Assembly (NCBI GenBank): GCA_006384855.1
Contig: VCJN01002744.1
Location: 124,001-188,000, forward strand
DNA length: 64,000 nt
Direction: 5' to 3'
Source: Tetraselmis striata
Lineage: Eukaryota; Chlorophyta; Chlorodendrophyceae; Chlorodendrales; Chlorodendraceae
In this document: in pieces, positions 1 through 42,781 of the stretch
How the letters are laid out: each line of letters starts with the position of its first letter
Numbering within the stretch: position 1 is the stretch's first letter
Notes under the pieces: model-generated
What the model was told of the DNA's origin: nothing
The model's input: only the letters and a program-made list of their open reading frames with translations
Databases searched by the model: none
Position numbers and translations under genes: made by a program

Positions 1-212
1 CCTACCTACCTACCTTCGGAGAACCTGCCTCGACCCGCCGCCTTTGCCTCGTTCCGCCGCCGCCACCAAGTGATCATGTACTTTGCGCCAGTACACGCGA
101 ACCCTAAAAACCTGCACAGGGTTTAAAGCTAGTAAACTGTCCCATTTTCAGTGAGTCATAAGTGAAGTATAGTGGCATGTACCGTTTACGCTATGATCTT
201 GTCCCAGTCCCC
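1..212. repeat. Left terminal inverted repeat
   Basis: This stretch is the reverse complement of 5597-5808 apart from a few small differences: one extra GCC unit near base 60, one fewer TAGG unit at the end, and scattered substitutions. The repeat enters the 3' end of the reverse transcriptase remnant, so the last residues of that frame are encoded by the TIR. A partial third copy lies at 10868-10945. Confidence 0.85.
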
Positions 213-1333
213 ACCGCGGGCACTCCGCATACATATGTTCGATAGTCTCAGATTCACCTCCGCCACATGCAGGGCAGTCTTCCAGGAACCGCTCAGGCAT
301 GGCATGAATCCGGGCCAATCGGCGGGCAGTGGGAAATACTCGGGTGCGTAATTGTATCATAATGTGCAACCCGGCCACCACCCCCGCGGGGACACCCACA
401 CCGTACTGTGGCAACGGGTTTGACGCATAAGACGCATGGACATATATACCCCATGTTTTATTGCGTGCTAACGATGCCGACGATTCGTAACGCGCCCACA
501 CCGATGCCTTTACTAGTTTAGCGGCATCGCGCGCGGCTAGTGACCTCCACTCAAGTGGAAGGTGCGCCCCCTCCGCTAGCCCTACGTTCACCCTAGCTAG
601 TCGATCTAACCACCGCACAGTCCCCGACGTCCACGTGTTAGGGCGCGCCCGACTTGGCTGATCTACGAAATGGGTTATACATGTATTCAAGTCGGATGCT
701 TTAAGGAACGCCCGAGCCGTGCCGCAGCGGCCGTAGCCTCTATGGGCGCAATATCCAATTCCCGCATCATCGGTGCAGTGGCCACCCCAGGGGAGTTTTT
801 ACCCAACCCAATGAGGCACCGCAAGCACTGATTGAGTACGGGTTGTAATTTATTTGCGCCGCTAGTTCTATCCATGCCCCATACTTCACCCCCATAAGTT
901 AAAACCGGCAGTACACAGGTTTTAAAGACAGGCACACGCACATTAATAGGAATTATGTCTCGTCCACCGACTAATACCGAAGCGAGCACCTCAATGGCGC
1001 GTTTACCTTCTTAGCCCGGTCGTCTACTATGTGTTGCATACCTAAATCCGACTTAATGACAGTACCCAAGTGCCTATATACATTTACAACCGGTACCCGT
1101 TCCCCCCCAAGCTGCCATCGGGCAGCTTGTTCGCGTAACGCGGTCTCGTCGGAATATCGGCCTAATGCCATCACCCCACACTTAAGTACCCCAAACCCCA
1201 TAAAATGGTCCTCCGCCCACTGCGAGAAGTGGGCGAACATGGCATGCATGTTATCGAACGAGCCTGTGATATCAATATTGTCGTCCGCGTATAACTGACC
1301 TGGCAGTACCTCAATAGCACTAGGGGTACGCAC
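211..1333 (-). pseudogene. LINE-like reverse transcriptase, C-terminal half (remnant)
   Basis: Minus-strand frames contain the RT catalytic box as LYADDNIDITGS. It is followed by a WAEDHFMGFGVLKCGVM stretch and then by VLPVLTYGGEVWGMDR and MMRELDIAPIEA, blocks typical of LINE (non-LTR) reverse transcriptases. The C-terminal zinc-binding motif follows as CPACGG with a later EHMYAEC, also usual for LINEs. Nothing upstream of the YADD region is recognisable as RT, so the enzyme is 5'-truncated. It is a remnant spread over more than one frame. Confidence 0.75.
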
Positions 1334-1340
1334 TGCTTAA

Positions 1341-1388
1341 TAGGCAGAAGTTATCATATTCGTCAACAAAACGCGCGCGCGGGATGCG
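1341..1388. repeat. Direct repeat, copy 1 (partner 2238-2285)
   Basis: About 48 bp, beginning GGCAGAAGTTATCATATTCG and ending in a CG-alternating run, recurs almost unchanged at 2238-2285 in the same orientation. The second copy lies in the tail of the recombinase remnant. The two copies bracket an 850-bp spacer (1389-2237) with no recognised gene. The pair could mark an internal duplication or an insertion boundary between the recombinase and RT parts. Confidence 0.7.
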
Positions 1389-2237
1389 CCCACTGTAGGA
1401 ACCGCGGCACCGCCTGCCGATAAAACGGGGCCTTTCTCCGACGGAAGTTTAGCACCCGCAGCTGAGCCCAAGTTGTGATTCGCAAATGATAGGGGCGCGC
1501 AGGACGCACAATAATACGCCCTCGAACGTGCAGGACGTCCGCTGCGGTCTCCTCCAACAACTAGTCACGCATCGTCATGGCCGTACCCAACAGCTCGCGT
1601 ATGCTCATGCTTTAAGGAGATGGCCGACCCGCCGAAAGCTAAGCCCAAAGCCCCACGGCCAACAGACGACCGCCGAGGTCGGGGCGCAGCCCGGATGGAT
1701 CCCCGCAATGTCAGCCCCATGCATGGGTAATGTAGCTGCCATGAGCCGAACAAAGCCGCACGACGAGCCAAGCCGGCCTCCCCCAACGGCGAGGGCAGCC
1801 CGCAGGGCCGCAAGCGCGACGCGCCCAGCCCGCCTTCGCGCGCCGGGTATGTTTGCCAATAAGAGGCCGCCGCGCCACACGCGCCTCACGGTCCCCGGCA
1901 GCGACGCGCAAGACATGTGCGCCGAGGAAACAAGCCTGGCGCGGGAGAAGGGTAGGGGGGGGGGGGGTATGCATGGTCGGGGCATGGTCGGGGCGATCGC
2001 CCGCCATGGCGTCACTACCTGGTGGCTTCTATTGGAGGAAACGGAAGGGGGTCCAGTCGGAGGAACGCGCTCCTACAGTTTTTCTCCGACCATTCATCTT
2101 AGGAAGGAAAATGACGTCACCGACGAATGATAAGGGGTGCGGCGACCGTTTTCCTACAGTAGGGTAATCCTGAATAATCCATGCGATTCTACATCATCGT
2201 AGGAACGAGTTTCATTGACGAATGATATCTTCTCCCG

Positions 2238-2285
2238 TGGGCAGAAGTTATCATATTCGTCCACGAAACGCGCGCGCGGGATGCG
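2238..2285. repeat. Direct repeat, copy 2 (partner 1341-1388)
   Basis: This copy is read on the minus strand as the tail of the recombinase frame (RIPRARFVDEYDNF). The same peptide can be read from the copy at 1341-1388. A short coding end has therefore been duplicated beside the reverse transcriptase remnant. Confidence 0.7.
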
Positions 2286-2289
2286 AGAA

Positions 2290-3500
2290 GAGGGCGGCAG
2301 CGCCAGGTCACGTAGGGGGCATCGGAAGGGCCAGTGTTGCGGAGTCGTGTTGAACTTGGAAGTGGCGAGAGGGCGCGATGTGGCCGATCGAAGACGAACC
2401 CCGCGCCGGGTAAAGGGAGGACGTTGGGGTCGATGTAGTCCAAAACGACGTTGGAATTGACTGTCCACCCGCCCTGGTGGCGGATGTGGGACAACAGGGC
2501 TCCGCTAGACTTCGCAACAGAGGTTGCACCTTCGCGAAGGTTGTGAGCGGTCCATGAAGTGCCGGTAGGGGGCCAGCACCGACGAGACGAATGGCCGTAG
2601 AGGGCCAATCCGACATCGTAGCGGCAATCCACGAGTTTGTGCTCGCTCGGGATGACCGCCTAGAAGTCAGTCTCGGCCAAGGCAGCACGGACCAGAGGAG
2701 TAGACTGGACGTCGTCGATGAAGTGGTGCAGAAGACGTGCGACACGGGGGTGCTCCGACAATTCGGGAAAGGGCGGTACGCGTAGGTCGTCGGGGCCGCG
2801 CCGGCCGGCGCGTCCCCTCTCGCGGTGCACATGCAGGGTATAATGCTGTAGGAATCGACGTGCACGTCCCGCACTCGGCAGGCAACGCCAATAAGCCCCC
2901 GGGCGAAAGTTGACAACTGCCGCGGCCATGAGGGCCCGGAGTTCGTATTGGGGAGGGGGGGGGGGGGTAGCAAAAACAACCAACTCGGCACGCTCAACGT
3001 AAGAGTAAGCGACATCGGCATGCAACGGGACGGGCAAAGCGACGTACAGCCTCCAGGTAGCGTTCCCTGAGTAAAATGCCACGACGTGCGGCGGTGAGAT
3101 GTAGGCTGTCCTTAACAATGGCGTCGATGTTGTGTACTTCAAAGAACGTATTGATTGCCGATAGGTAGGGCTGCAACGAATTACCCCCAATGCTCACCGA
3201 TCCAAGCGACGTACCGAACGATGGTGGTTGTAATCGCCTCTACAGCGGGCTCATGTTCTCCGAGTCGTGGCAGAACTCGGCGAGCTGAGCAAGATTGCCG
3301 GAGTAGCTCTGTAGAGTCTGGGCGCTGAGAGGAGGTCGAGTGCGCGCTGCCCCGCTAACAGCTCGTCCGAGACGACGAACGCCTCATGTAGACGGGTCCG
3401 GAGCGAAGCCGCCAAAGGGGCGAGAGCTTCGGGCTCGTCAATATGACGAAAGCAGTGCGACATTTGACCGACGTGGTAACACATGGCCGGGCCATTCCGG
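2290..3500 (-). pseudogene. Tyrosine recombinase (DIRS/Crypton type), remnant
   Basis: Minus-strand frames carry an N-terminal SAM-like core-binding region (TLQSYSGNLAQLAEFCHDSE, then SLQPYLSAINTFFEVHN). Further on is the C-terminal catalytic part, with HNLREGATSVAKSSGALL, HIRHQGGW and a final LDYIDP. These correspond to the HxxR box, the GGW region and the nucleophilic tyrosine of tyrosine recombinases. This arrangement is known from DIRS-like retrotransposons and Crypton DNA transposons. The reading is distributed over several frames, so this is a fossil. A poly-C/poly-G tract at about 2950 lies inside it. Confidence 0.75.
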
Positions 3501-5596
3501 CAAATTATTCGGTTGCGGCCGTTAGCAGGTTGCCGGCAGTTGAACGGTAAATGTTTGATGGCTTAGTTTGGGCACCAACACGGATTTACCGGACAATGTT
3601 CAAGAAGGCGGGCCGCCCCGTGCGCCTCTCGCGCTCGTAGCGCATGCCCCACGCGTAACGTACACGCGCGAATGTTGGTCGTTGCGAACCAATTGTAACC
3701 CGTAGAGTAACAACCGACGGACGCGCGCGCAGTGATGAAATGGTACGGGAGACGACAGGTTGTTGAACAGTCATGTGCAGGTGTGCGGATGAGCCTCCGC
3801 AGGAAGGCTAGACGAAAACGAAACGCCTTGTCGATGGCCTCAGCGTGTTTGCGAGCGCGCAAGGTAAGGGGTTAAGTCTTTATTTGCAGTTGGGACGAAG
3901 GATAGCAGCTCGTCGAGAGCCACGAAGAGAGCGGCTGTGTGAGCCCCAAAATAACACGTCATCCAAATGTACTCCTCGTCCTGGACTGGCAGACGCCGGC
4001 CATCCTGCTAGAGGTAGTCTTTCGTAGGTTGGTACGCAAAGGGAAAACTCCAAGCACTCGGCTGACCGATCTAACATCCTCGTAACCATGCTCTTCTCTC
4101 TGCAGTAGCTCGGGCACCGCGAGGTAGTCGTCCTCGTCACTCGCGGATATTGCTCCGACACGGCCGCTCTTGGTTGGCGGCTCTAGCAATTCGGGGCGCG
4201 CTGCGGCTCCCCCGCCGCATGTCGGTTGTCCCGCGGCGCGTTGCCCGGATCCATAGCCATGTGCTCCGCCTCATCCATCGACACCACGTCCACGAACCGT
4301 CAGTTGGGCCAACGACGAAGATGTGAGCTCGAGCAGCAACGTAGATTGAGCATGCATATATCTGCTTGAAGCGATGTTCGAGCGTCATCGGCTCGGCGAC
4401 GGGGTCTTGTCAATCTGGCATGGTGACGCACGGACGTTAACGAATGATGATGACACCCACGGATGATAGCCGGGTGTGGTCTTGAAACACATGTGACCTT
4501 GCCCGCAAAAGGTTACGGGAAACTTAATCGCTGTGTATAATATGGAAGATGGCAGCCTCAATTTATTGCGGCTGCTTTTATGTATACTTGTGATATATAT
4601 ACGAACGGGCGCAACGACGGGTTGACTAGTAACCCGTACCACTTAGCAGCACATGATGTAGCTGGAAAACAAGCGGTTAGGAAATAAGGAGGAAATAACC
4701 ACGCAAACTAGTTTAGATCATTAGGGGTGCCGACAAAGCCCTTTACATGCTGCGCGAGGTCGTATCCCCGCACGACAAATCCCCGCACACTCATATCAGC
4801 AGCAACAACAATGCGCATGCGTGCAAATCGCATGCAATAATAATCGCAGTGACGGCGAGTATTCGGTCCCCTCGTCGGTACGCGCCTCCAGCATCAACAT
4901 CTCATTAGCGCCATATCTATGCCACGACCACGGCGCATGGGAAATGCTTCCACGAACGACTACGCGAGTACGCGCATATCTAATGTTGTGTTTTGAAGAG
5001 TGTGTTGCGAGAATATCCCGACTATCAACACATGCCGCCCCGCAAAAGTGCCAAATGTAGGAGGCTGTTGCCAATCCGCCTTGCCTTAAGGGGCAAACGC
5101 CAATTTCTCCTTTTCGAATATACTGAGATGAGGCCAACAGGTAAAGGTACAATACTCCGCATAGAGTATGTATTTCTACATTGCCGTGCATGCATCTGCC
5201 CCTAAAAGAAGGCAAATGTTCAAAAATTCTAAAGTATCACGGAAAGGGTACCCTTGCAAGGAGATGATGTTGCAACATGCACTACACACGATGTAATGAT
5301 GTGTGAATGACATGCATGCGGCTTGCTCGCACCACAACAGAGGGTTACTACCATGAGACTCGCCACACGACATCATGCGACCAAATGGCATGCCATTACC
5401 CACGGTATGTGACCATATCCATTTGCATTCATCAATAGTTTGTTTGTACATATTTATTGCCGCGCAACGACGACGTGCATGAAGTGTTTTGTCTTGAAGA
5501 AGCCATGCCGCACCATGGTAAGGAGTTACAAGACATGAGAGGATGCCCGGGACTTCACATGTGCGTAACACGGTATAGCTGTCAATGTTGTATCAG
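3500..5596. other. Unassigned 5' part of the TIR element
   Basis: No conserved domain was recognised on either strand. The longest minus-strand frame (5176-5571) encodes 131 residues rich in Cys, Met and His and ends near the right TIR. Other frames of 60-140 residues have no recognisable motif. This stretch would be upstream of the recombinase in the element's reading direction. Confidence 0.4.
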
Positions 5597-5808
5597 GGGA
5601 CTGGGACAAGATCATAGCGTAAACGGTACATGCCACTATACTTTACTTATGACTCACTGAAAATGGGACAATTTACTAGCTTTAAACCCTGTGCAGGTTT
5701 TTAGGGTTCGCGTGTACTGGCGCAAAGTACATGATCATTTGGTGGCGGCGGAACGAGGCAAAGGCGGCGGGTCGAGGCAGGTTCTCCGAAGGTAGGTAGG
5801 TAGGTAGG
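5597..5808. repeat. Right terminal inverted repeat
   Basis: This is the inverted partner of 1-212. Just outside it (5809-5840) a GTCGAGGCAG-TTCTCCG motif found inside the TIR occurs again. The element end may therefore carry a short tandem subrepeat, or the TIR may be slightly longer than shown. Confidence 0.85.
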
Positions 5809-5897
5809 TTGCCGCGAAGTCGAGGCAGTTCTCCGCCTCCCACACCTGTCTAACCGTTCTCGCTGAAACAAGTAGGAAGTAGGGCTGCGGGGTCAGT

Positions 5898-6421: not shown

Positions 6422-6469
6422 TTCCGCGTGCAGGTAGCAGTCACATGCGGTTGAACCAACGGATACTTT

Positions 6470-7790
6470 ACAGCAAGGCCGCCCACCTTGCTTGCGACTG
6501 GCGTCGCTTCTTTTGAGGCCGGTTGCGACTATGCGGCAGCAAGGCGAGGGGGTACGTCGCTCGTGCAGCTGGCAGTCGGGGGGATGTGGGTAGGTTGAAC
6601 GCGCGATGGCGACATAAGTAGCAAGCCATAAAAATGCAAAGGTCGACAACATTATGTCGCAGCAAGGCCGACCATCTTGGCGACGTGCGTCGCTTCTTTT
6701 GAGGGCGGCTGCGACTCGTTGGCGGCGGGCGAGGGGATGCGTCGCTTGTGCCAGCTTTTGCACTCGGGGCTGTGGGTCGAATGTGCGATGGCGACATTAT
6801 AACTAGCAAGCCGAAAACTGATACAGCCCAGCATAGCCTTACCTCGCAGAAAGGCCGCCCACCTTGGCGACTCGCGGCGCATCTTGCAGGCCGGCTGCGA
6901 CTTGTCGGTAGCAAGGCGAGGGGGTGCGTCGCTCGTGCCAGCTTTTGCACTCGGGGGCTGTCGGACGAACGTGCGATGGTGACATAATTAGCCAGTCGGA
7001 AACTAACTAAAACAACCTAGCATCGCAGTAAGGTCACCCACCTCGGCGACTCCCGGCACCTCTTGCGAGCCGGCTGCGACTCGTCGGCAGCAAGGCGAGG
7101 GGGTGCGTCGCTCGGGCGGGGCTGTGGGTGGAACGTGCGATGGCGACAAAATTAGCAAGCCGGAAAACTACAAGAGCCTATAACCCATAGCCTCACATCA
7201 CAACAAGGCCGTCCACCTTGGCGACTGGCGTCGCTTCATTTCAGGCCGGCTGCGACGCGTCGGCAGCAAGGCGAGGGGGTGCGTCGCTCGGGGGCTGTGG
7301 GTGGAACGTGCGATGTCGACAAAATTAGCAAGCCGGAAACTACATGAGCCCATAACCCATGGCCTTACATCACAGCAAGGCCGTCCACCTTGGCGACTGG
7401 CGTCGCTTCATTTCAGGCCGGCTGCGACTCGTCGGCAGCAAGGCAAGGGGGTGCGTCGCTCGTGCCAGCTTTTGCAATTGGGGGCTGTGGGTCGAACGTG
7501 CGATGGCGACATAATTAGCAAGCCGAAAACAACAGAAGCCCCGGATAACCTTACATCGCAGCAAGGCCGCCCACCTTGGCGACTGGCGTTGCTTCTATTA
7601 AGGCCGGCTGCAACTCGTCGGCAGCGGGGGCAGGGAGTGCGTTGCTCGTGCTAGTTTTTGGAGTCGGGGGCTGTCAGTCGAACGTGTAATGGCGACATAA
7701 TTAGCAAGCCGTATAAAAATACAAAGAGGCACCACAACATTACATCGCAGCACGGCCAACCCCCCCCCCCCCCCCCCTCCACCCTGCCCT
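6470..7790. repeat. Satellite array A, units of about 165-190 bp
   Basis: A diverged unit recurs head to tail. Landmarks in each unit are GCGATGGCGACAT-AATTAGCAAGCC, CATCGCAGCAAGGCCGCCCA and GGCCGGCTGCGACTCGTCGG. Copies of the GCGATGGCGACA landmark lie near 6605, 6785, 6972, 7137, 7310, 7498 and 7688, giving spacings of 165-190 bp. On the minus strand most units can be read as a similar peptide (ARATHPLALLPTSRSRP), so the satellite may derive from a coding repeat. Confidence 0.85.
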
Positions 7791-8105
7791 CCATCCCACC
7801 TATTCCGAATCTCTTACAACGGGCATGATGGTTGTCGCGCCTTTAGCCTCCGAGCCGCTGGCATCCGGCACGCCCTCACCCCCGCCTAATGCGAGCGCAA
7901 GTCCAGAGAGTGTGGCTGCCGACACGCCGGCTCCCGGCCCGCCGCTCTCCCCCGCGTGGCTATCGCCAGGCGTAGGCAAGCCCTCGGCCACATCGCCAGC
8001 GGCAGCCGCCAAACTCGGCGACATGTCTGCCGATGGCGGGCCCTGCCCCTGACCCGCCACTGCCTGCGTATCGGCCCAGCTAGGTTCAATGGCCAGGGCC
8101 GCCAC
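7740..8105 (-). pseudogene. Duplicated coding-like block, copy 1
   Basis: A poly-C tract at about 7760 is followed by a block that matches 9900-10300 in the same orientation. The minus strand reads VAGQGQGPPSADMSPSL and then GESGGPGAG, almost as in the second copy. The open frame runs to about 100 residues of Ala/Gly/Ser/Pro-rich sequence. No family is recognised. Confidence 0.45.
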
Positions 8106-8560
8106 GCGACGAGAGCGTTTGGCATGCGGGTCAGGAGCAGCGCCGCGAGGGGGTTCGTCGCTCGGGCCAGCTTCTGCGCTTGGGGTCTGCGGGGGCCAAC
8201 GTGCGATGGCGACTCAATTGGCATGCCGTAAAAGTAACAAGTGCGCAACGGCAACAAAGGTGCAGCGGGTCCAACCCATCTTGGCGACATGAGGCGCCCC
8301 TGTCGAGGCCGGCTGCGACTCAGGAGCAGCGCTTCGAGGGGGTGCGTCGCTCGGGCAAGCCTCTGCGCTCGGGGTATGCGGGGCCAACGTGCGATTTCGA
8401 CTCTATTAGCGAGCCGTAAAAGTAATAGGTGCGCAATGGCAACACGTGCAGCGGGGCCAACCCACCTTGACGATTCGCGGCGCCCTTGTCGAGGCCGGCT
8501 GCGGCTCGGCAGCAGGCAGGCGAGGGGGTGCGTCAACACGACTGCCATACAACACGACTG
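8106..8560. repeat. Satellite array B, diverged units
   Basis: About three units of the same satellite family are present, with landmarks GCGAGGGGGTGCGTCGCTCG and GGCCGGCTGCGACTC. They are more diverged than array A: the CATCGCAGCAAGG part is changed to a CCATCTTGGCGACATG form. Confidence 0.7.
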
Positions 8561-8960
8561 CCACTCCGAGTAGCAGGTCACCCAGGCGCGCATTGTCGCG
8601 TATACCGACAGTAGGCGAGGATTGCTGCCCCAACCTTGTCGCCCCTTGCAAGCCGTCCACAGAAATTGTTGTCGACTGAAGTGCGTTTCTGCGGGCGACA
8701 ACGGGGTTTCCTGCGACTGCGACGAGTCCAAAAGGTGTCGGCAGTGCAACCACCTTTATCTATGGCGGGCACTTTTGCATACATCTCCAGGGTCTCGGGC
8801 TCCGCTGCGCCCGGCACCACTTCAGCGGTGCCCACCCCATAGTAGAGCTGGCCATCCTGCGCTCCGCCCTCTTCCTCACGGCCGCGCTTGGAGCCAGCAC
8901 CACCCTGTCCGCGTTTGCCCTTGCGTTTTCCCTATGTTTGCTTCTCCCGGCCTGCACAGG
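8560..8960 (-). pseudogene. Unrecognised coding-like remnant between satellite arrays
   Basis: The minus strand holds a basic stretch (KRKGKRGQGG) followed by EEEGGAQDGQLYYGVGTAEV and a segment ending ETLEMYAKVPAIDKGGCTAD. The composition is that of a real protein and the frame stays open for over 100 codons. No domain is recognised. It is enclosed by satellite on both sides, which suggests a mobile-element protein fragment. Confidence 0.35.
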
Positions 8961-8999
8961 CGTCACCAAAGGATTGCCGCAACTGTGAGCAAACCGTGA

Positions 9000-9900
9000 G
9001 GGTCGTTCGGGCCTTTTGCAGCGGGGGCAGCGGGTGCGTCGCTCGTGCCAGATTTTGCAGTCGGGAGGTATGGGTCGAATGTGCGATGGCGACTACATAA
9101 TCAGCAAGTCGGAAACTAAAAAACCCCGACATAGCCTTTCATCGCAGCAAGGCCGCCCACCTTGCGACTGACGTCGCTTCTTTTGAGGCCGGTTGCGACT
9201 CGCCGACAGCAAGGCGAGGGGGTGCGTCGCTCGTGCAGCTAGCAATCGGGGGGGGGCGAGGGCGAACGCGCGATGGCGACATATTTAGCAAGCCATAAAA
9301 ATGCGAAGGTGGATAACAACATTATGTCGCAGCAAGGCCGCCCGCCTTGGCGACGTGCGTCGCCTCGGTTGAAGCCGGCTGCGACTCGTCAGCATCGAGC
9401 GAGGGGATGCGTCGCTCGTGCAAGGTTTGGCACTCGGGGGCTATCGGTGGAACGTGCGATGGCGGCAGAATATTTTAGCATGCCGGAAACTGCAGAAGCC
9501 TAGCTTAACCTTACATCGCAGCAAGGCCGCCCACCCTTGCGACTGGTGGCGCCTGCGAGCCGGCTGCGACTCGTCGGCAGCAAGGCAAGGGGGTGCGTCG
9601 CTCGTGCTTTGCAATCAGGGGCTGTGGGTCGAACGCGCGATGGCGACATAATTAGCAAGCCGAAAACAACAGAAGCCCAGGACAGCAACATTACATCGCA
9701 GCAAGGCCGCCCACCTTGGCGACTGGCGTTGCTTCTATTAAGGCCGGCTGCAACTCGTCGGCAGCGGGGGCAGGGAGTGCGTTGCTCGTGCTAGTTTTTG
9801 GAGTCGGGGGTTGTCAGTCGAACGTGTAATGGCGACATAATTAGCAAGCCGTATAAAAATGCAAAGGTGCACCACACTACCACGCATTACATCACAGCAC
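9000..9900. repeat. Satellite array C
   Basis: About five more units of the 165-190 bp satellite family follow, with landmarks near 9085, 9270, 9460, 9640 and 9830. The last unit (about 9700-9870) is nearly identical to the last unit of array A (about 7560-7740). Both are followed by a poly-C tract and the duplicated coding-like block, so a segment of at least 700 bp was copied. Confidence 0.8.
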
Positions 9901-10584
9901 GGCCACAACCCCCCCCCCCCCCCCCCCCGCCCCCGCCCCCGCCCCCCGCTATCCATCCCGCCTATTCCACAGCTCTTACCGTGGGCATGGTGGTTGTCGC
10001 ACCTTTAGCCTCCGAGCCGCTGGCATCCGGCACGCCCCCACCCCCGCCTAATGCGAGCGCAAGTCTACAGGGTGTGCCGGTGTGGCTGCCGACGCGCCGG
10101 CTCCCTGCCCGCCGCTCTCCCCAGCCTGCCTATCGCTATGCGTAGGCCAGCCCTCGGCCGCATCGCCAGCGACAGCCAAGCTCGGCGACATGTCGGCCGC
10201 TGATGGGCCCTGCCCCTGACCCGCCACTGCCTGCGTATCGGCCCGGCTAGGTCCAACGGCAAGGGCCGCCACGCGACGAGAGCGTTGGGTGGGGGCACGT
10301 CGAGCAGACGCAGCCCTTGGTCGAGCGGGTCGGGCGGACCGGCTGGCTGACTCTTGAGAGGGTGGCCGCTTGCGGGGGGGAGGGGGGGGGGGGTTGCTAG
10401 GCACCTCCATCGCGATGGGACCTACCCCAGCCTGCATGGTAGTAATCGATAGCGTGAGCTGCAAGTCTCGCGACATGGCAGGGAATGTAGGGCAAGTAAC
10501 GCACAGGGACGCAGGGACGTAAGAGGCGGTATCATGCCTATTCACCAGCCGTGCAGACCTACGCCGAAGGTAGGCGAAGTCCAT
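9900..10584 (-). pseudogene. Duplicated coding-like block, copy 2, longer open frame
   Basis: The minus-strand frame 10048-10584 is open for 178 codons and includes the sequence shared with 7740-8105. The upstream part reads SRDLQLTLSITTMQAG, then a proline run and an Arg/Ala/Ser-rich stretch. No conserved domain was recognised. The low-complexity make-up and the repeat setting suggest a transposon ORF rather than a host gene. Confidence 0.4.
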
Positions 10585-10867: not shown

Positions 10868-10945
10868 GAGCTAGTAAATTGTCCCATTTTCAGCGAGTCA
10901 AAAGTGAAGTCTAGTGGCCTGCACCGTTTACGCTATAATATTGCC
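10868..10945. repeat. Fragment of the TIR seen at 1-212
   Basis: About 78 bp, from AGCTAGTAAATTGTCCCATT to the TTTACGCTATAATATTG end, match bases 127-205 of the left TIR in the same orientation, with several substitutions. The outer part of the TIR is absent. It indicates a second, mostly lost copy of the same element on the far side of the satellite. Confidence 0.75.
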
Positions 10946-12496: not shown

Positions 12497-15323
12497 GGGG
12501 CGACCGCCCGTTGCCACCCACCACCGCATCCTTTCCTCCCGTGTCGATATGTCGATGCCTTCTGCGCCAGCCAGTGTCTATCGCTCACCTCAGGCCTCAG
12601 CAGCTACCGCTACAACGTCCCCCGAGCCTCGCCGACTTTCGCCCTGCCCGGCTGCCCACCTGTGTGGCCCACTTGCCTGTGTCGGGACCCCTTGCCACTC
12701 GGACCGCTACTTCAAGGGCGCCGATATGTGGTTTTCCTGCTGCTTTGTGCGCCGCAGAGTTCCCCCACCGCCCCAGGGCTGAGCTCGAGCCCAAGATAGT
12801 GGCAGCGGATAAGCTGCTGACAACCGCAGGAGGTGCGAGCTCGCAGCCAAAACAAGCCGTCCCCTGCCACAGCCAGCGTGAAGAGAGTCGCCGACGTGCC
12901 ATTTACGCGCACCCGCAGTGCCCTCACTCCCCGGCTGGAACCCCCCCCCCCCCCCCCCCCCCGCCCCCCCCCGCCCCCGCACCTCCACTTACCGATCCTT
13001 CACAGGCAACTATTTCGACATGCCCATCCGCATGGACGGCGCGCTGCGCAAGATGCCCAGCGGCCGCACCGATAGCATCATGCCGCCCATCTTCGGCGCC
13101 AGCCACGCCAGCAACCTGCTGGAGCTTCCGGATGGGACGCTACTGCTGGTGTGGTTCAGCGGCGGGGATGAGGGCGGCGACGGCGTGGGCATCGTCTCCT
13201 CGCTTCTGCCTCCAGGTGGGGCGCCTCGCCGCGCCTGCACATCCACCGCCATGGCGCAGAGCGGCAGCTGAGAGGGGCCTCCGCTGCACCCGCATTGCAG
13301 GCTCCGCACACTGGACGAAGCCCATCCTTGCAAGCTCGCAGCGCATGCGCAGCGCACAGAATCCGGTCACCTTCTACGAGCCCAGCGAGAACGTCGTGCG
13401 GCTGCTGCACACGTCGCAGGTGCGCGGTGCCGGCCAAGCTGCGTGCCTCATGCGGTGGAGCCCTGTGCTGCGCGAGCGCCTGACCTGGCACTGCTGCCTG
13501 CCGGCGTGCAGGAGGCATACATGGGGCAGGGCACAGCGGAGGTGCGCCTGGTGGAATCGTTCGATGGAGGGAAGTCGTGGAAGACGCCCAAGGTAGGGGC
13601 GCCCGTGGGGAGGGGGTGTAGGCTGGTGGCGTACAGCGTGCCGCGGACATCTGACCCGCGATGACAGCACCCGACTTGAGCGCCTCCCCCCCTCCCCCTC
13701 CTTCCCAGACGTTGTTCACGGAAGAGGGCGCATTTGTGAAGAACCAGCTCCTGAGGTCCCGGGACGGCAAGGAGTGGTGCGTGCCAGCCCTCCCCGAACC
13801 TCAGGGCCACCCATGCATCAAACCCCTCCTGGCACGGGGTCGTAGCGGGAGCACGTGTGCCGCCCGGGACCCCTCTGAAGCGCCGAATAGGGGCCGTTTA
13901 CCCTGGAAGCAGTGACTAGCAAAGACGTAATACAGCCGGCCGAATTCTCCAAGCCACAGAGCACCGACATCATGGGGAGCCCCCCGCCCCCCCCCCCCCC
14001 CCCATCTTCCGCGCCACGCCTGCGTTTGATAATCCCACCGTGGATGGTACAGATGCCGATGCGCTACTGAGAGCTCGCCCGCGGTTTAATCCAGCCACCG
14101 AAGTGCCGGCAAAGGTTCTGGCGTAACGTCATCGACCCGTCCGATGTGTAATGGCTGGGCATGACGGCATGTCTTCGTCCTCGTTTAAGCATAAACACCT
14201 GTGACGCCCCGCCCCCCGCATCGGGGCGGCTGCGCAGGCTGCTGCCGATGTACTACACGCCGACCGGCTTCCTGGGCCACGACACGCAGTACTCCACCGT
14301 GAAGCGCAGCGGCGACGGGGGCAGGACGTGGACGGAGTACGTGATGGACGGCAGCCTGGGCCGCTGCGTGCAGCCGACGGTGGTGCGGCTGCGCTCGGGC
14401 ACGCTGCGGGCGTGGTTCAGGTAGGGCTGGGCGGCCCGCTCTCAACCGGGGGGATTGGGTGCTTTCGCACTTGTTGTTTGGCAGCCTCATAAGTTCGCGC
14501 GTGTAGCTTCGCTGAGCTCGAGCTGCGCCGCTGCGGCGCAGGAGCCGCGACGCGGACTACATCTACACCTCTGACTCCAAGGACGACGGCCGCACCTGGA
14601 GCCGCCCGGTTGCCACCAGGCTGCCCAACAACAACTCCGGCATCCAGGTCGGGACGTGCTCCGCCTGGCCACGCGCACTGGCACAAGGGCCAGGGGCGGA
14701 CGCATCATGCTGACCCTCGGCCGTGCTGCTGCTGCTGCGCAGGCTGCCATGCTGAAGAGCGGAGCCGTCGTGATGGTGTTCAACAACTACCAGGTGCGCG
14801 GTGCGCCGCTTGCCGGACAGCGCGGGGGCGCTGCGGCTGGCTGCCTGAAACATCCGCCGGTGGACGCCGGTGACAGGGCGCGGACGCCCGCTACCCCTTG
14901 ACCATCGCCCTGAGCCCGGACGAGGGCGCCACCTGGCCACACCTGCGCGACCTGGAGCCTGCGTACGCCCGCCCCAACGTGCCTGCCCGCCATCGAGCGT
15001 AGAGTGTCATCGCTCAGAATGCTGACAGGAGAACACTGCGCTGCCCTGACGGCAGTGGCGACGGCGAGGAGGCCGACTACGAGGAGCAGATGGGCGAGTA
15101 CAGCTACCCCTCCGTCATCCAGACCGCGGACGGCGCCCTCCATGTCAGCTACACCTTCCGGCGCGAATCCATCAGGTGCGTACCGGCGGTGTCTCGAGCC
15201 GCGGAGCGCCCGGCGTCCCGGAACGCTGCTCACTGGTGCACCTTTGGGGGCGAGCGCAGGTACGCCCGGATCTCGGAGGATTGGATCCGCCAAGGCGCTA
15301 CCATCGGGGTGTTCAAGAGCTAG
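12328..15323 (+). CDS. Secreted sialidase-fold protein (BNR/Asp-box family), 12 exons
   Basis: Exons: 12328-12383, 12777-12832, 13006-13215, 13301-13419, 13512-13592, 13709-13776, 14238-14420, 14542-14647, 14743-14793, 14877-14962, 15056-15175, 15260-15323. They sum to 1,200 nt and 399 residues, and every junction is in phase with GT-AG ends. The start MARRVCTLLCLSVGLTALW looks like a signal peptide or anchor. The body is a six-bladed propeller of the BNR_2/sialidase type. It opens with ASHASNLLELPDGTLLLVWF and has Asp-box motifs SFDGGKSW, SRDGKEW, SGDGGRTW, SKDDGRTW and SPDEGATW. It closes with YSYPSVIQTADGALHVSY and YARISEDWI. Members hydrolyse glycosidic bonds or bind glycans, but sialic acid as substrate is not shown. 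Exons 3-12 are firm. Exons 1-2 are chosen because they fit in phase. Intron 1 has a poly-G tract; introns 2 and 6 have poly-C tracts. Confidence 0.85.
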
Positions 15324-31900: not shown

Positions 31901-34900
31901 TGCAGGTGGAGTATGTGCATGGAGGCAAGCTCCCGTCGTCCGGCGGCTGGATAGTGCGATTCAATGGGGCGCCGACCTGCCTGGATCCTGCATGGACCAG
32001 CACCGAGGCCTTGCTGTGCCAGAGATCGCCATCCTTTTGGTGCCAGGTCCGACTCTTACTCCGACCGATCTCTGTTGTGCTATCGACGTGCAGGCGCAAT
32101 GTCGACCCTTGGACATACTTTATACCCTTGACGCGGATTTACAATTAACCCGCGGTGCCTGGCCGTGCTTTGCCACCCTTCTAGCGTTTTTCTATTTCTA
32201 TTCTATTCCGCTATTCTATTCTATTCTTATATTATTGCTCAAGTTCCATCATAATAGACTGTTTAGGCTCACTACTAGGGATTATGTGATAACGCACATC
32301 GACACTTGATTTTACGGCGTTGTTTGTAATCCTGACCAAACGCCCAGTGTGATCCTTGCCAGCATGTATACGACGTTGGATCTGTAGCGTATGAGGATAA
32401 TAATCTGATCAAATACGAACAGATGAGGACTATACTCAACACGCGTAATACATGAGTGCAATTCACGCAACATTACGCGAGTGTGGTAAACACCAACATG
32501 TCGTGCATCGGTTCGCATTCCTAAATCGCTGTGCGATTTCAAACATTGCACGTATACTCAAACAATCATGTTTTAGTGCTTTCCGGAATTGATTTGCGAT
32601 GTGACTATGACTACGATTTATCTGTCGGTTTTCATTCAAAATAATCCAAAATCTCAGTACATTATCTATTTATATTCATATTTCTGACTGCCGAAATTCC
32701 ATCCGAATAGACTGTTGAGTTATCGTTTCAGATGGCCAGAATCCTCGACAACAAGCACTGCTGCTGCATCCTTCACCATGCGGATTGCGCTTTGTGTCGC
32801 TCACACCTGGATGCTCACACGATGTACTCGCAGGCCTCGGACTCCGGCACGCACGACGGCTTGTGGCGACACTTCGCGCTGCGCTTCTCGCAGCACGCCG
32901 ACGCCGCCACCCAGAGCCTGGATGTGCTGCAGGATGGGAAGCGCTTGTGTGGTGTCTCCTTCCCAGCGGAGCAGGGCATGCTTCCGCATCGCTCTACGGG
33001 GTGCGACGCCGCCGTGTCGCATCCGCTCTTGTGTGCTATTATTGTGCTCTCTATTCTAGATGGGTTTCTTCTGGACACAACCTGTGCTCCCTAATGTCTA
33101 TGCTGGTCATAATTAAATTCTCACTGATTTTGATTTGTCACTTATCAATGATTGTTATTAGCGTCACTTATTTCCCCATAATTTGATTCTCCGAGTTGAT
33201 TTGTTAAGTTTGTTTCCCCAAATCAATACTAGTCTGATGCTAACTTGATTCACCAAGTTAAACTGGCAGCATCCTGCTGTTATATACTCTCACCCAGTCA
33301 AAGATGAGAAGAGCGGCACTCTACAGCCTGTCACTTGCAAATGGGCCTGCTCACCCTCATTCCATATCCTGTGCGTGACGATTGCGGCGCCGACATGTGC
33401 CTACGCCTCCAGGTCCCTGCGCGTCGGGATGGAGGACCGCGGCAATGCGGCTGGCGCGGCACTGGCGCTCCAGGCGGTCGAGCTGTACTCCCAGGTTCTG
33501 ACCAGCCGTCAGATTATGGCACTGGCAAGCAATCCCAACGTAAGGAGACAGGCATGCTCCTTATTGTCCTGCTCTGCCATGATGAGCGCGTGGTCCCGTG
33601 CTGGTGTGGAAACTGTCTGCGATCGCCTCCTAACACTCCCTCGCCGTCCCGCCCCCAGTTGCAGGAATGTTTACCCCTTGATACGTTGACAGACAATCCA
33701 AACTACACCACATCCTTTGGCCAGGTTAGCCGCCGCCATCGCCCCCACCCTGGTCGCACTTGCCGCGCGACACTACCCTCCCGCCCTTTAGTGCTCTGGT
33801 GTTAACATTATAACAGTGACAAGAGGCTGCCGCCCGCATGGCATGTTTGCCCTGTAAGGCTGGATGCAGCACTGCTGACAGTAATCGCCGGTGGATTGGC
33901 CGCTGCCCTCTGCAGTCCTGCGCAGACCTGGCGGAGCAGCGGTCCGGCGCTGAGTCCGCAACCTCGGAAGCCGGCATCTGCACGCTGCCGTCTGCCATTG
34001 AAAACTGCCCGGTGTCCTGCCGCAACACGAGTGCCCCGCTGTGCTTCGACGGGCTGGTGTCGCCCCCGGCACCGGAGGAATCCCCCTTTGGTGCAGTCAC
34101 CAAGTGAGCACGGCCTTTGGCTCCCGCCACCCTCCCCGCCGCTCTGTCTGCTCACAATGAACATCTGGAGAGACAGGAAGAGGTGGATGACCGCCCGCAT
34201 ATCTTGGGGGCGGCGCTTGAGGCGGTCGGAAAAGTGCATGAAAGCATGCATTGAGTAGACGGGTAAAGCCATGACATTTTGAACAGACAGTAACAATCGA
34301 GGCGGCATTCGCCTGAAAGGTAAACCGCTTGCCACACGGCAACGTGATATCGAATATGTACCTGTTACCATAGGTACACATACTCGCAGTGTATAAACAT
34401 CGTTGTTGTCACCCTACATTCCTTCCCCCGCGAGACATCAATTCTCGATGTGTGGGGATCGAAATTGGTGACCTCTAGGTCCCTGGATCGGGAACTTGTG
34501 CTCCGAAACCAGTGTGACAATCGAGGCGGCATTCATCTCTTAACACACATCACTTGCCTTTCGGCCGCGTGATATGGTACATATGCTCGTCGTAACCTCA
34601 GAAACGCATCGTACACGTACTCCTAGCGCATACATGTATCGATATCGTCACGAGACCGCAGGCAAGGGACATTCTGCCAGCTCGTGTGGCTTTGTTCGCA
34701 TCGTGGCTGCGTCTCCATCTCCTCTACCATGACGGCAACCTGGCCCAGATCCGCTGCACCGCCGCGACTGACGGAGTCTGCTCCGCGGCTGCCCACTCCT
34801 GCAGGGCCCTGCTTCTCGAGCCCGCTGCCCGCGCCGCGAGGTTCCCTGACTACGGCGATGACGCGTACTGGTCCTCTCTGCAGCAGCACAGCAAGGCGCA

Positions 34901-40900: not shown

Positions 40901-42781
40901 CAGGAAAGGGCCCGCCCCGGACCACCCCGCATAGGGCCCGCTAATTTAAGCGCGTACGATGGGGCTGCCTTGATATACGATATCACGCGGCCGTGCGGCA
41001 AGTGGTGTGTGTGTGAGATGAATGCCGCCTCGATTGTTACACTGGTTTCGGAGCATAAGTTCCCGATCCATAAGATCCCGATCTCGAGGGGGAAGGAATG
41101 TAGTGTGACAATAACGACATGTGTATGCGCTACGAGTACGTGTACGATGCGTACCTGAGGTTACGACGAGCATATATAAGATATCATGCGGCCGTGTGGC
41201 AAGCGGTGTGCCTTTTCGATGAATGCCCCCTCGATTGTTACACGGCAGCAGCCCTAACAGCGCTCGAACGTGCCGCTGCGTGTGCGCACTTTCCGTTGTG
41301 TCAGCGCACAAACCCCTATTCACTTCATGCGAGCCCGTGCGCAACAAGCACAAAGCACGCAGCCAGTTGCTTACGCTGCAACAACCCGCATTGATACGTG
41401 AATGAGTAGTTGCTGCCGACTCATTGCCGCAGGAAATCAAAACGGCCGTGCGCCGGTTTCAGCGGGCGCACAACTCGGTGGTCACCAAGATGGGGACGAT
41501 GACTGTCTCCCGCCGGTGGACCATCTCCAAGTTCAAGCTCTCCAACCCCATGAGCTACACCGCCGACACCACGCAGCCGGACATCCTCGACGTCTTGTTC
41601 TTCCTGGCGATTGTGCTCCTGCTGGTTTCGGAGCTGATACTGAGGAAAGGCATGGTGGACGGCGTGACGGCTGCGTTCGGGGATCTCTCGGAGCAGCAGT
41701 GGGGCTCGCCGGACCGCACGTTTGCGGAGGAGATGAGCGTCTTCATGGATCGGGTGAAGCGCGCGGACGTGCAGATGACCATGGAGACAAACGTGAAGAT
41801 GGTCAGCTTCGTGGTGCTGCTCATGCTGGGCGTGCGGCTTGTGGTGTTCATGAAGGTCCACCCGCGCGTGGCGACCATCACGCGCACCTTCGAGACCGTC
41901 GGCACCGAGCTCCTCAACTTCCTGTTTTCTTTCGGTATCATTTTTGTGTTCATGGCTCTCACGGCCCACCTCAGGTACGCCGGCAGCAGCGGCCCCACTG
42001 CGCCACATGATGCCAGGCGCAGCGGGTCTTAAGCGGGAGGGGTGCGCTCGGCGGTGCTGACGCGGGCGCCTGTCGCCGCAGGTTTGGCGCGCAGATGCAG
42101 GCGTTCTCCACTTTTCGCAGGTCCCTGCTGACCCAGTTCATGGTGCTCCTGACTGTCGATCTCCCCGACTTTGGAAAGGACATTTTCATGACGATTTATG
42201 TGGTTGGGTATGTGGTGCTCTGCGCCCTGTCGCTCCTGAACTTTTTCCTTGCCATCGTGGTCAACGGCTACACCAAGGTCAGCGAGGATGTGCTGGAGAA
42301 CAAGGTGGTGAACTCGATTGGCAAGGACGTGCTCCTCGTCATTCGCGACGTCTGGCTGTGGCCAGCGCGGGGTTGGATCCACAAGGCAGCGATCCTCAAC
42401 GTTCTCGCGCGCGCCTACCCGCACATCTTTGAGAACGGCTACAATCAGGCCGACACCTACAAAGAGGAGCTGCTCACCCGAGAGGAGTGCGTGGACCTGT
42501 TCATCGCCGACGCAGTAACCAACCCGGAGTCCAACTCCCTGCGGCGGCCGCGCTCGCCCATGTCACGGCTCGCCAGCTGGTTGCGCCTCCCGTCCGGCGG
42601 ATGGACCCCCCGCGCGGCGCGCAAGGAGGAGGACCCCGTGGATGTGGCAGCCACGATTGGCGACGTGCATGACCACTACACAAAGCAGTTCAACAAGACG
42701 GTGCTGGTGGCCTCACGCATGAGCGTGGATATCTACCGGCGGCAGGTCTCAGGCAATGCTGCTGCAAACGCAGCTCCATAG
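28947..42781 (+). CDS. PKD2: Polycystin-family cation channel with giant S1-S2 ectodomain, ~22 exons
   Basis: Exons: 28947-29156, 29547-29667, 29871-30025, 30190-30396, 30554-30715, 30902-31087, 31220-31765, 31906-32046, 32732-33000, 33413-33539, 33659-33724, 33916-34103, 34662-34928, 35571-35712, 36521-36674, 36833-36959, 37121-37215, 37522-37885, 38626-38679, 40201-40713, 41433-41974, 42082-42781. All join in phase except 12-13, where the true edge or a small exon is missing. The product is about 1,780 residues. S1 (RFLLTLLFGFLFAY) lies near residue 90. S2 is near 1345-1364, S3 1415-1434, S4 1487-1507, S5 1524-1545, the pore helix (FSTFRRSLLTQFMVLL) 1557-1572 and S6 1577-1606. A 170-residue cytosolic tail follows. 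The pore block matches PKD2. About 1,230 extracellular residues lie between S1 and S2, with many Cys, NxS/T sites and laminin-G-like stretches (WTFFALSVDVENEYMIFAID). Likely role: ciliary Ca2+-permeable channel. Intron 14 is GC-AG. Exon 9 could start at 32836. Confidence 0.9.
32151..32731. other. Large intron 8 of the polycystin gene, AT-rich insert
   Basis: From about 32158 the intron becomes AT-rich with a TTCTATTCTATTC run. It begins with a 33-bp motif (CCTGGCCGTG...CTTCTAGCG) found again at 38847 in intron 19. The insert is probably a dispersed repeat. No gene is seen. Confidence 0.45.
33040..33300. repeat. Degenerate short repeats in polycystin intron 9
   Basis: Variants of CTGATTTTGATTTGTCA, TTGATTCTCCGAGTTGATTTG and CTTGATTCACCAAGTT follow one another, giving an irregular TTGATT-based tandem pattern. 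It is AT-rich relative to the flanking exons. Confidence 0.4.
34289..34650 (-). mobile_element. Miniature LTR element (TRIM-like) in polycystin intron 12
   Basis: Two LTR-like repeats of about 120-138 bp (34289-34411 and 34513-34650) flank about 100 bp of internal sequence. On the minus strand the right LTR is followed by TGGTTTCGGAGC (34511-34500), an initiator-tRNA-Met-like primer site. The left LTR is preceded by a purine-rich GGGGGAAGGAA. LTRs start TGAC and end near TTGT(C/A)ACA. It has no coding capacity, as expected for a TRIM. The element ends only 11 bases before the acceptor proposed for exon 13. The LTRs are clearly diverged from one another, so it is not a recent insertion. It is a fossil whose parts are all still visible. 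Confidence 0.75.
35713..36520 (+). other. Probable GC-AG intron 14 of the polycystin gene
   Basis: Exon 14 ends ...TGCCCAG and is followed by GCAAGCTG, a close match to the AG|GCAAG consensus of GC donors. Exon 15 starts after TGACTTTCAG. The phases (1 nt, then 2 nt) join to a glycine codon. No GT donor of the right phase was found in the open part of exon 14. Confidence 0.6.
35957..36214 (+). repeat. Dispersed repeat, copy A (partner 38101-38371)
   Basis: A 258-bp sequence in polycystin intron 14 recurs in intron 18 in the same orientation. Shared blocks are GGGTAGGGCGG, GACGGTGATCCAAC, TGTTGGAAATTCCGT and AGACGCTGCAAGGGTTTCA, ending CCTGTCCCGGGGGCGA. No coding capacity and no clear tRNA promoter boxes are seen. 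It could be a SINE, a MITE or a solo repeat of an unknown family. Confidence 0.75.
38101..38371 (+). repeat. Dispersed repeat, copy B (partner 35957-36214)
   Basis: This copy matches copy A along its length with substitutions and small insertions, including a TTACTTACTTG tract after the ATATGCTTG block. It lies in polycystin intron 18. Confidence 0.75.
40778..41242 (+). mobile_element. Miniature LTR element (TRIM-like) in polycystin intron 20, with nested insertion
   Basis: The right LTR is 41106-41242 (137 bp, TGACAATAACG to GATTGTTACA). The left LTR is 40778-41041 and carries a further insertion of about 130 bp in its middle, between GGGTTA and TTGATATACG. Between the LTRs are TGGTTTCGGAGC (41043-41054, initiator-tRNA-Met-like primer site) and a purine tract GAGGGGGAAGGAA (about 41086-41098). 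It is the same family as 34289-34650, in opposite orientation. It has no coding capacity. It is a fossil with both LTRs, primer site and purine tract visible and one nested insertion. Confidence 0.8.

What the first reader, a model, noticed from the sequence alone, without database searches (positions are those of the whole stretch)
1..5808. Tyrosine recombinase and LINE-like RT inside one TIR-bounded element
Seen: 212-bp inverted ends enclose both a tyrosine recombinase remnant and a reverse transcriptase whose blocks are LINE-like. Both are on the minus strand, and the RT runs into the TIR. Known: recombinase-bearing retroelements (DIRS, Ngaro, PAT, VIPER) carry an RT related to LTR elements. 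Inference: this could be an undescribed class that pairs a LINE-type RT with a recombinase and inverted ends, or a LINE fixed inside a Crypton-like element.
Basis: partly seen in the sequence, partly recalled or inferred. Interest (0 to 1): 0.75.

Follow-up and report, generated by a model that had tools for sequence, protein, structure and literature searches.

The report
Wreck of nested transposon fragments
Two cut-down copies of a LINE retrotransposon facing opposite ways, with the tail end of a tyrosine-recombinase mobile element between them, look like one new transposon but are most likely ordinary debris of two known kinds.

Summary
The inverted arms are real (1-212 and 5596-5808; 3 substitutions and one 3-nt gap) but are probably not transposon TIRs. 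The left arm is continuous with the LINE-like ORF and holds its stop codon. Both arms end outward in TAGG units, the only runs of three or more in the 64 kb. That is how a LINE 3' end looks, so the right arm reads as a second, 5'-truncated LINE copy in opposite orientation.

The recombinase remnant is real: its C-terminal box aligns with Cre over H-x-x-R, W and Y. It belongs to a separate element whose 3' end can be placed. A 46-bp direct repeat has one copy (2240-2285) that ends at the dyad centre of a 60-bp palindrome (z -5.95, 0 of 200 shuffles). The other copy (1343-1388) is a lone half-site, 6 nt from the LINE fragment. This is the B1A2...B2 layout of PAT, Ngaro and VIPER elements. Their 5' repeat and RT/RNase H were not found.

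So: a YR-element 3' part next to a truncated LINE, plus an inverted LINE tail. A new class is unlikely. Other copies, the left flank and an RT tree could not be tested (no host genome held).

The parts
1..1336 (-). 5'-truncated LINE 3' part: RT from YADD to the CCHC knuckle (two frameshifts), stop codon at 148-150, about 135 bp of 3' UTR, CCTA units at bases 1-12 (tail, cut by the window edge)
   Evidence: ORF pieces; zf-RVT E 0.045, below cut-off; repeat runs; LINE blocks recognised by eye
5596..5808 (+). second copy of the LINE 3' end (last 20 codons, UTR, four TAGG units), opposite orientation: the right 'TIR'
   Evidence: 97.2% to 1-212; alignment; the ORF likeness does not go convincingly further 5'; no target duplication
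1343..1388 (-). B2: 46-bp repeat, lone half of the recombination site; inferred 3' end of the YR element
   Evidence: 44 of 46 bases identical to 2240-2285
2240..2285 (-). B1: internal copy of the 46-bp repeat, ending at the dyad centre of the palindrome
2209..2269 (.). imperfect palindrome of about 60 bp, loop at 2237-2239: inferred full recombination site (B1-A2 junction)
   Evidence: -17.3 kcal/mol; 0 of 200 shuffles as good; z -5.95; only one hairpin of the window, near 62610, scores higher in that scan
2429..3239 (-). tyrosine recombinase remnant: core-binding-like part in one frame (2994-3239, by eye), catalytic part in another (3061-2429, one stop)
   Evidence: Cre over the HxxR...W...Y box; phrog_29857 E 0.001 to 0.00017
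3240..4290 (-). possible N-terminal part of the same gene or a preceding ORF, broken; assignment uncertain
   Evidence: reading frames only; no family match
4291..5595 (.). filler without recognisable coding sequence: 5' remains of the YR element or host DNA
10869..10943 (-). third piece of the LINE arm (75 bp, 89.3%), without the tail or the ORF

Best explanation
The stretch is a wreck of at least three pieces of two known kinds of mobile element. (1) A LINE inserted by target-primed reverse transcription and survives as a 5'-truncated 3' part (1-1336, minus). (2) A split-direct-repeat tyrosine-recombinase element lies head to tail with it in the same sense (1343 to at least 3239). Its recombinase presumably joined a circular DNA to a target at the centre of a palindromic site, which put its 3' end (B2) at 1343, inside or directly beside the LINE copy. 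(3) A second 5'-truncated LINE 3' end lies the other way round at 5596-5808 and makes the 'TIR'. The 5' ends of the LINE and of the YR element were lost, perhaps in one deletion. Shown: arms, tails, ORF pieces, Cre-like box, 46-bp repeat, palindrome, and the 6-nt distance between the repeat and the LINE frame. Inferred: insertion mechanisms, order of events, deletion.
For: The LINE ORF runs through the inner edge of the left arm and stops inside it. Both arms end outward in TAGG units, the only runs of 3 or more units in the window. Copies of C-terminal RT coding end + 3' UTR + microsatellite are a described product of LINE retroposition (PMC2887409, passages), and LINE copies are mostly 5'-truncated to 100-1,000 bp (PMC3747384, passages). 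The YR element has its own terminus between the two domains: 46-bp repeat (44 of 46) ending at the dyad centre of a palindrome. The order YR, B1, A2, B2 is that of Ngaro, VIPER and PAT-like elements (PMC4157794; PMC6681497; passages). The RT lacks all before YADD.
Against: No target duplication around the right LINE copy (best 4 nt; 200 control pairs average 4.0). The left arm has no stable RNA fold (z +1.78, 196 of 200 shuffles fold as well). The right arm and the third copy begin within 11 nt of each other in LINE coordinates, which random truncation does not predict. The A1 repeat of the YR element was not found, nor was the LINE 5' half. RT and YR lack Pfam support, and a longer YR piece found no Cre match among solved structures (one unrelated chain, E 2). 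LINE sequence is adjacent to the YR end only by its open frame, not by comparison with an intact LINE.
Confidence: 0.72

Rival explanations
1. Template-jump chimera: a LINE reverse transcriptase copied LINE RNA from its tail to just upstream of YADD, jumped to the 3' end of a YR-element RNA and stopped before its 5' end, so that LINE and YR parts are one insertion in one sense.
For: Same sense; YR 3' end joined to a truncated LINE; both 5' ends missing. LINE template jumps are described (PMC2104539, listing and start of abstract only).
Against: The joint falls at the dyad centre of a recombination site, which a jump does not explain; no poly(A) at the joint (sequence).
Confidence: 0.1
2. A DNA transposon or fold-back element with real 212-bp TIRs that carries LINE and YR debris as passengers.
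For: The arms are an exact inverted pair at 97%; a third piece of the arm lies without the LINE ORF; no LINE-type target duplication was found.
Against: The arm holds the last 20 codons and stop of the LINE ORF and a microsatellite end; no transposase family matched in the three minus-strand frames of 1-5808 (the plus strand was not scanned as whole frames).
Confidence: 0.1
3. One reading: one element that uses a LINE-type RT together with a tyrosine recombinase and TIRs.
For: Both domains lie on one strand between the arms.
Against: The RT lacks everything before YADD; the YR element ends between the two domains at its own recombination site; both genes are broken; only this one copy is known.
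Confidence: 0.03

Closest known systems
5'-truncated LINE (non-LTR) copies with short tandem-repeat tails
   Same: C-terminal RT coding end, short 3' UTR, microsatellite tail (PMC2887409, PMC3747384; passages)
   Different: Tail unit TAGG; no target duplication found for the right copy; clade not determined
Split-direct-repeat YR retroelements (PAT-like, Ngaro-like, VIPER-like)
   Same: YR gene followed by B1, A2 and a terminal B2 repeat (PMC4157794, PMC6681497; passages)
   Different: A1, Gag and RT/RNase H not found in the preserved part
Cryptons
   Same: YR gene without an RT of its own in the preserved part
   Different: Cryptons are described as having neither TIRs nor long direct repeats, only 4-6-bp ones (PMC3212892, passages); here there is a 46-bp repeat
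Zepp-type nested LINE clusters of green algae
   Same: Insertions into one another that leave mostly LINE 3' ends (PMC8226300, passages)
   Different: Only three pieces here, another tail, host not identified

Membership tests
LINE (non-LTR retrotransposon), truncated copy | RT with LINE-type blocks | tested here: inconclusive
   YADD, post-YADD blocks and CCHC knuckle by eye; zf-RVT below cut-off; no RVT model; no RT among solved structures
LINE (non-LTR retrotransposon), truncated copy | 3' end in poly(A) or short tandem repeats | tested here: met
   CCTA x3 at 1-12 and TAGG x4 at 5793-5808
LINE (non-LTR retrotransposon), truncated copy | copies share the 3' end and differ in 5' truncation | tested here: met
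   two copies, about 1336 and 213 bp; the third piece at 10869-10943 does not share the tail
LINE (non-LTR retrotransposon), truncated copy | target-site duplication | tested here: not met
   right copy: best 4 nt, control mean 4.0; left copy not testable (window edge). Some LINE insertions lack one (recalled)
split-direct-repeat YR element (PAT, Ngaro, VIPER) | tyrosine recombinase with H-x-x-R, W/H and Y | tested here: met
   Cre alignment over these residues; the first catalytic Arg only by eye
split-direct-repeat YR element (PAT, Ngaro, VIPER) | B1-A2 junction downstream of YR and terminal B2 | tested here: met
   46-bp repeat pair and palindrome
split-direct-repeat YR element (PAT, Ngaro, VIPER) | A1 repeat at the 5' end | tested here: not met
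   no copy of the A2 side in the window; best candidate at 4435-4458 has 16 of 24 bases
split-direct-repeat YR element (PAT, Ngaro, VIPER) | own RT/RNase H (LTR-type) | tested here: not met
   none in the preserved part; the 5' part may be lost, so the element is filed by layout only, not as a proven member
Crypton | no long direct repeats, no TIRs | tested here: not met
   46-bp direct repeat
   no genome held; nothing in viral contigs (8 of 8 scans) or genome contigs
   the left flank lies outside the window

The most novel reading that the evidence does not exclude
The whole is, or was, a mobile unit: LINE 3' ends in inverted order bracket a tyrosine-recombinase element, so that a LINE RT serves a YR element as a fixed partner or in trans.
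Probability: 0.03. Interest if true: 0.75.

Novelty: new member of a known kind. Interest (0 to 1): 0.15.

Why it matters
It shows how two inverted, truncated LINE tails can pass for the TIRs of a new transposon, and gives a simple check: look for the LINE stop codon and a microsatellite inside the 'TIR'. The feature of some worth is the recombination site of the YR element (half-site at the end, full palindrome inside). It could serve to find intact relatives and to ask whether such elements in this host carry an RT of their own. If the unit were one element after all, it would break the rule that YR retroelements use an LTR-type RT.

Tried and rejected
Whole-genome search for other copies: no genome held. 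Relatives in IMG/VR by three DNA patterns of the elements, one of the neighbouring satellite, two LINE pieces and two YR pieces: none; the protein scans met 6, 4, 6 and 27 pattern stretches, none confirmed by tblastn. GTDB genomes: none; 11 stretches, none confirmed, and no exact match of one pattern. These scans need near-identical peptides or exact patterns, so they say little about distant relatives. Profile libraries: zf-RVT below cut-off, an uncharacterised PHROG for the YR box, and chance-level matches (iRhom1-2_N E 0.091, Hfq E 0.13, DUF4096 E 0.13, three PHROGs in all at E 0.18 and above). Rfam: no match at gathering score in the window. AlphaFold of the catalytic YR piece alone: pLDDT 30.8, not used; no fold search was run.

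Idea that the right LINE copy extends 5' of 5596 (tblastn E 2e-8 for 5322-5657): rejected, only the last 20 residues are convincing. Idea that the third piece is a further full LINE 3' end: not supported, flanks at shuffle level (45 and 164 of 300 shuffles as good). Idea that the arm is a folded RNA: z +1.78 for the left arm, +0.23 for the third piece. Idea that a short motif (TATCATTCGTCAATG-like) at 2118, 2213 and 4435 marks further sites: 4 matches in the window against 1.06 expected, 3 of 100 shuffles as many, so weak. Idea that 4435-4458 is the A1 repeat: 16 of 24 bases, while 42885-42908 reaches 18 of 24. A known YR plus LINE-RT composite in print: one search, 4 papers with at least 4 of 6 terms, none by title and start of abstract, two of them also by passages; this is no claim that none exists.
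Full report
WHAT IS THERE. The inverted repeat is real: 1-212 against 5804-5596, 97.2% over 212 columns. The full alignment shows three substitutions, one 3-nt gap and a longer tail on the right. The left arm starts at base 1 of the window, so its outer end is not seen. A third piece, 10869-10943 (minus sense), matches 75 bp of the arm at 89.3%. The sequences on either side of it are no more like the LINE than shuffled ones (45 and 164 of 300 shuffles score as well).

THE RT. Three minus-strand pieces, 971-1336, 687-1010 and 148-798, follow one another with two frameshifts. They start just before YADD, so the fingers, most of the palm and any endonuclease are missing. The blocks after YADD and the CCHC knuckle are of LINE type by my own recognition (recalled, no call). 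Profile support is weak: zf-RVT at E 0.045, 14.9 bits against a cut-off of 27.5, no RVT model, and no RT among solved structures.

WHY THE ARMS LOOK LIKE LINE ENDS. The LINE ORF runs past the inner edge of the left arm and stops at 148-150. About 135 bp follow, then CCTACCTACCTA at bases 1-12. The right arm ends in four TAGG units at 5793-5808. In the whole window only these two runs have three or more units. LINEs commonly end in poly(A) or other short repeats, and most copies are 5'-truncated to 100-1,000 bp (passages of PMC3747384). For RTE elements, partial copies made of the C-terminal RT coding end, the 3' UTR and a microsatellite are described as abundant (passages of PMC2887409). The right arm, 213 bp, fits such a copy in the opposite orientation. 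A SINE with a LINE-derived tail would look the same there.

Against this: no target duplication around the right arm (best 4 nt; 200 control pairs average 4.0); no notable RNA fold (z +1.78); and the right arm and the third piece begin within 11 nt of each other in LINE coordinates. Beyond the right tail, an 18-nt stretch of the LINE's own end recurs at 5819-5835 with one gap, which I cannot explain.

THE RECOMBINASE. The piece 2659-2189 holds HNLREGATSVAKSSGALLSHIRHQGGWTVNSNVVLDYI. phmmer against solved chains lists 17 sequences, all Cre or Tre, best E 0.039. In a search with the joined gene, 16 of 17 listed are Cre, best E 0.093, aligned over H-x-x-R, W and Y. A longer single-frame piece found no Cre, only one unrelated chain at E 2. 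PHROG family 29857 (no function given) matches at E 0.001 to 0.00017. Pfam and NCBIfam give no integrase. A core-binding-like part precedes it in another frame (3239-2994), by eye only. AlphaFold gave no usable model (pLDDT 30.8).

ITS OWN END. A 46-bp direct repeat, 44 of 46 identical, lies at 2240-2285 and 1343-1388. The first copy is about 150 bp beyond the catalytic tyrosine codon, within the open frame of that piece. It leads into a palindrome of about 60 bp, 2209-2269 (fold -17.3 kcal/mol; shuffles mean -5.99, sd 1.9; none of 200 as good). In a scan of 63,840 centres one hairpin near 62,610 scores higher, and two others, near 60,870 and 26,049, nearly as high. I chose the palindrome by eye before testing it. 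Its loop is at 2237-2239, so the repeat ends at the dyad centre, where a tyrosine recombinase would exchange strands. The copy at 1343 is half of this site, followed by unrelated sequence. YR sites of two inverted repeats around a short spacer are standard (PMC3212892, passages). The order YR, B1-A2, B2 is that of Ngaro and VIPER and is like PAT (PMC4157794; PMC6681497; passages). So the YR element most likely ends at 1343 and does not include the RT. Its A1 repeat was not found in the window.

HOW IT CAME ABOUT (inferred). The YR element's 3' end and the open frame of the LINE fragment are 6 nt apart. The simplest account is that the YR element recombined into a LINE copy just upstream of YADD; both then lost their 5' parts, possibly in one deletion; and a second LINE tail lies inverted at 5596. 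A template jump from LINE RNA to YR RNA would also put them head to tail, but leaves the dyad-centre boundary unexplained and shows no poly(A). A DNA transposon with 212-bp TIRs remains possible at about one in ten.

HOST. Not identified. A BNR-repeat gene spread over three frames at 13.0-15.3 kb, a SET domain, a polycystin-type channel (below the Pfam cut-off) and many poly-G tracts point to a eukaryote with introns. Of 100 further ORFs selected I gave 75 to Pfam; four families appeared, none of them RVT or integrase.

VERDICT. The single TIR-bounded element is most likely not. Interest is low, with a small chance of more that only other genomic copies can settle.

Noticed in passing
6438-9880 (units of about 172-189 bp); 7760-8122 and 9922-10289: Satellite-like tandem array of about 186-bp units, with a larger duplication about 2.17 kb apart, directly right of the LINE copy.
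   Followed up: no
57190-58451: Tandem array of 186-bp units, 6.9 copies, 97% matches, very GC-rich, open in several reading frames; period close to that of the other array but a different sequence by eye.
   Followed up: no
13000-15300: Intron-containing gene with BNR (sialidase-type) repeats: BNR_2 at E 1.9e-7, 1.2e-11 and 3.2e-8 in the three plus-strand frames.
   Followed up: partly
34290-34651 and 40973-41241: Inverted copies of short segments (56-106 bp, 81-96%) about 6.5 kb apart, near a polycystin-like channel piece at 42011-42778.
   Followed up: no
62551-62669: Strong hairpin, 54-nt arms 85% complementary with 11 nt between them; the best palindrome of the window in my scan.
   Followed up: no
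5771-5788 and 5819-5835: An 18-nt stretch of the LINE end recurs, with one gap, just beyond the TAGG tail of the right copy; perhaps an older LINE tail or a target with homology to the LINE end.
   Followed up: partly
10869-10943: 75 bp of the LINE arm at 89% with unrelated flanks on both sides; its nature is unclear.
   Followed up: partly
whole window: Many poly-G/poly-C tracts, two of them inside the YR region (1950-1969, 2950-2969).
   Followed up: no
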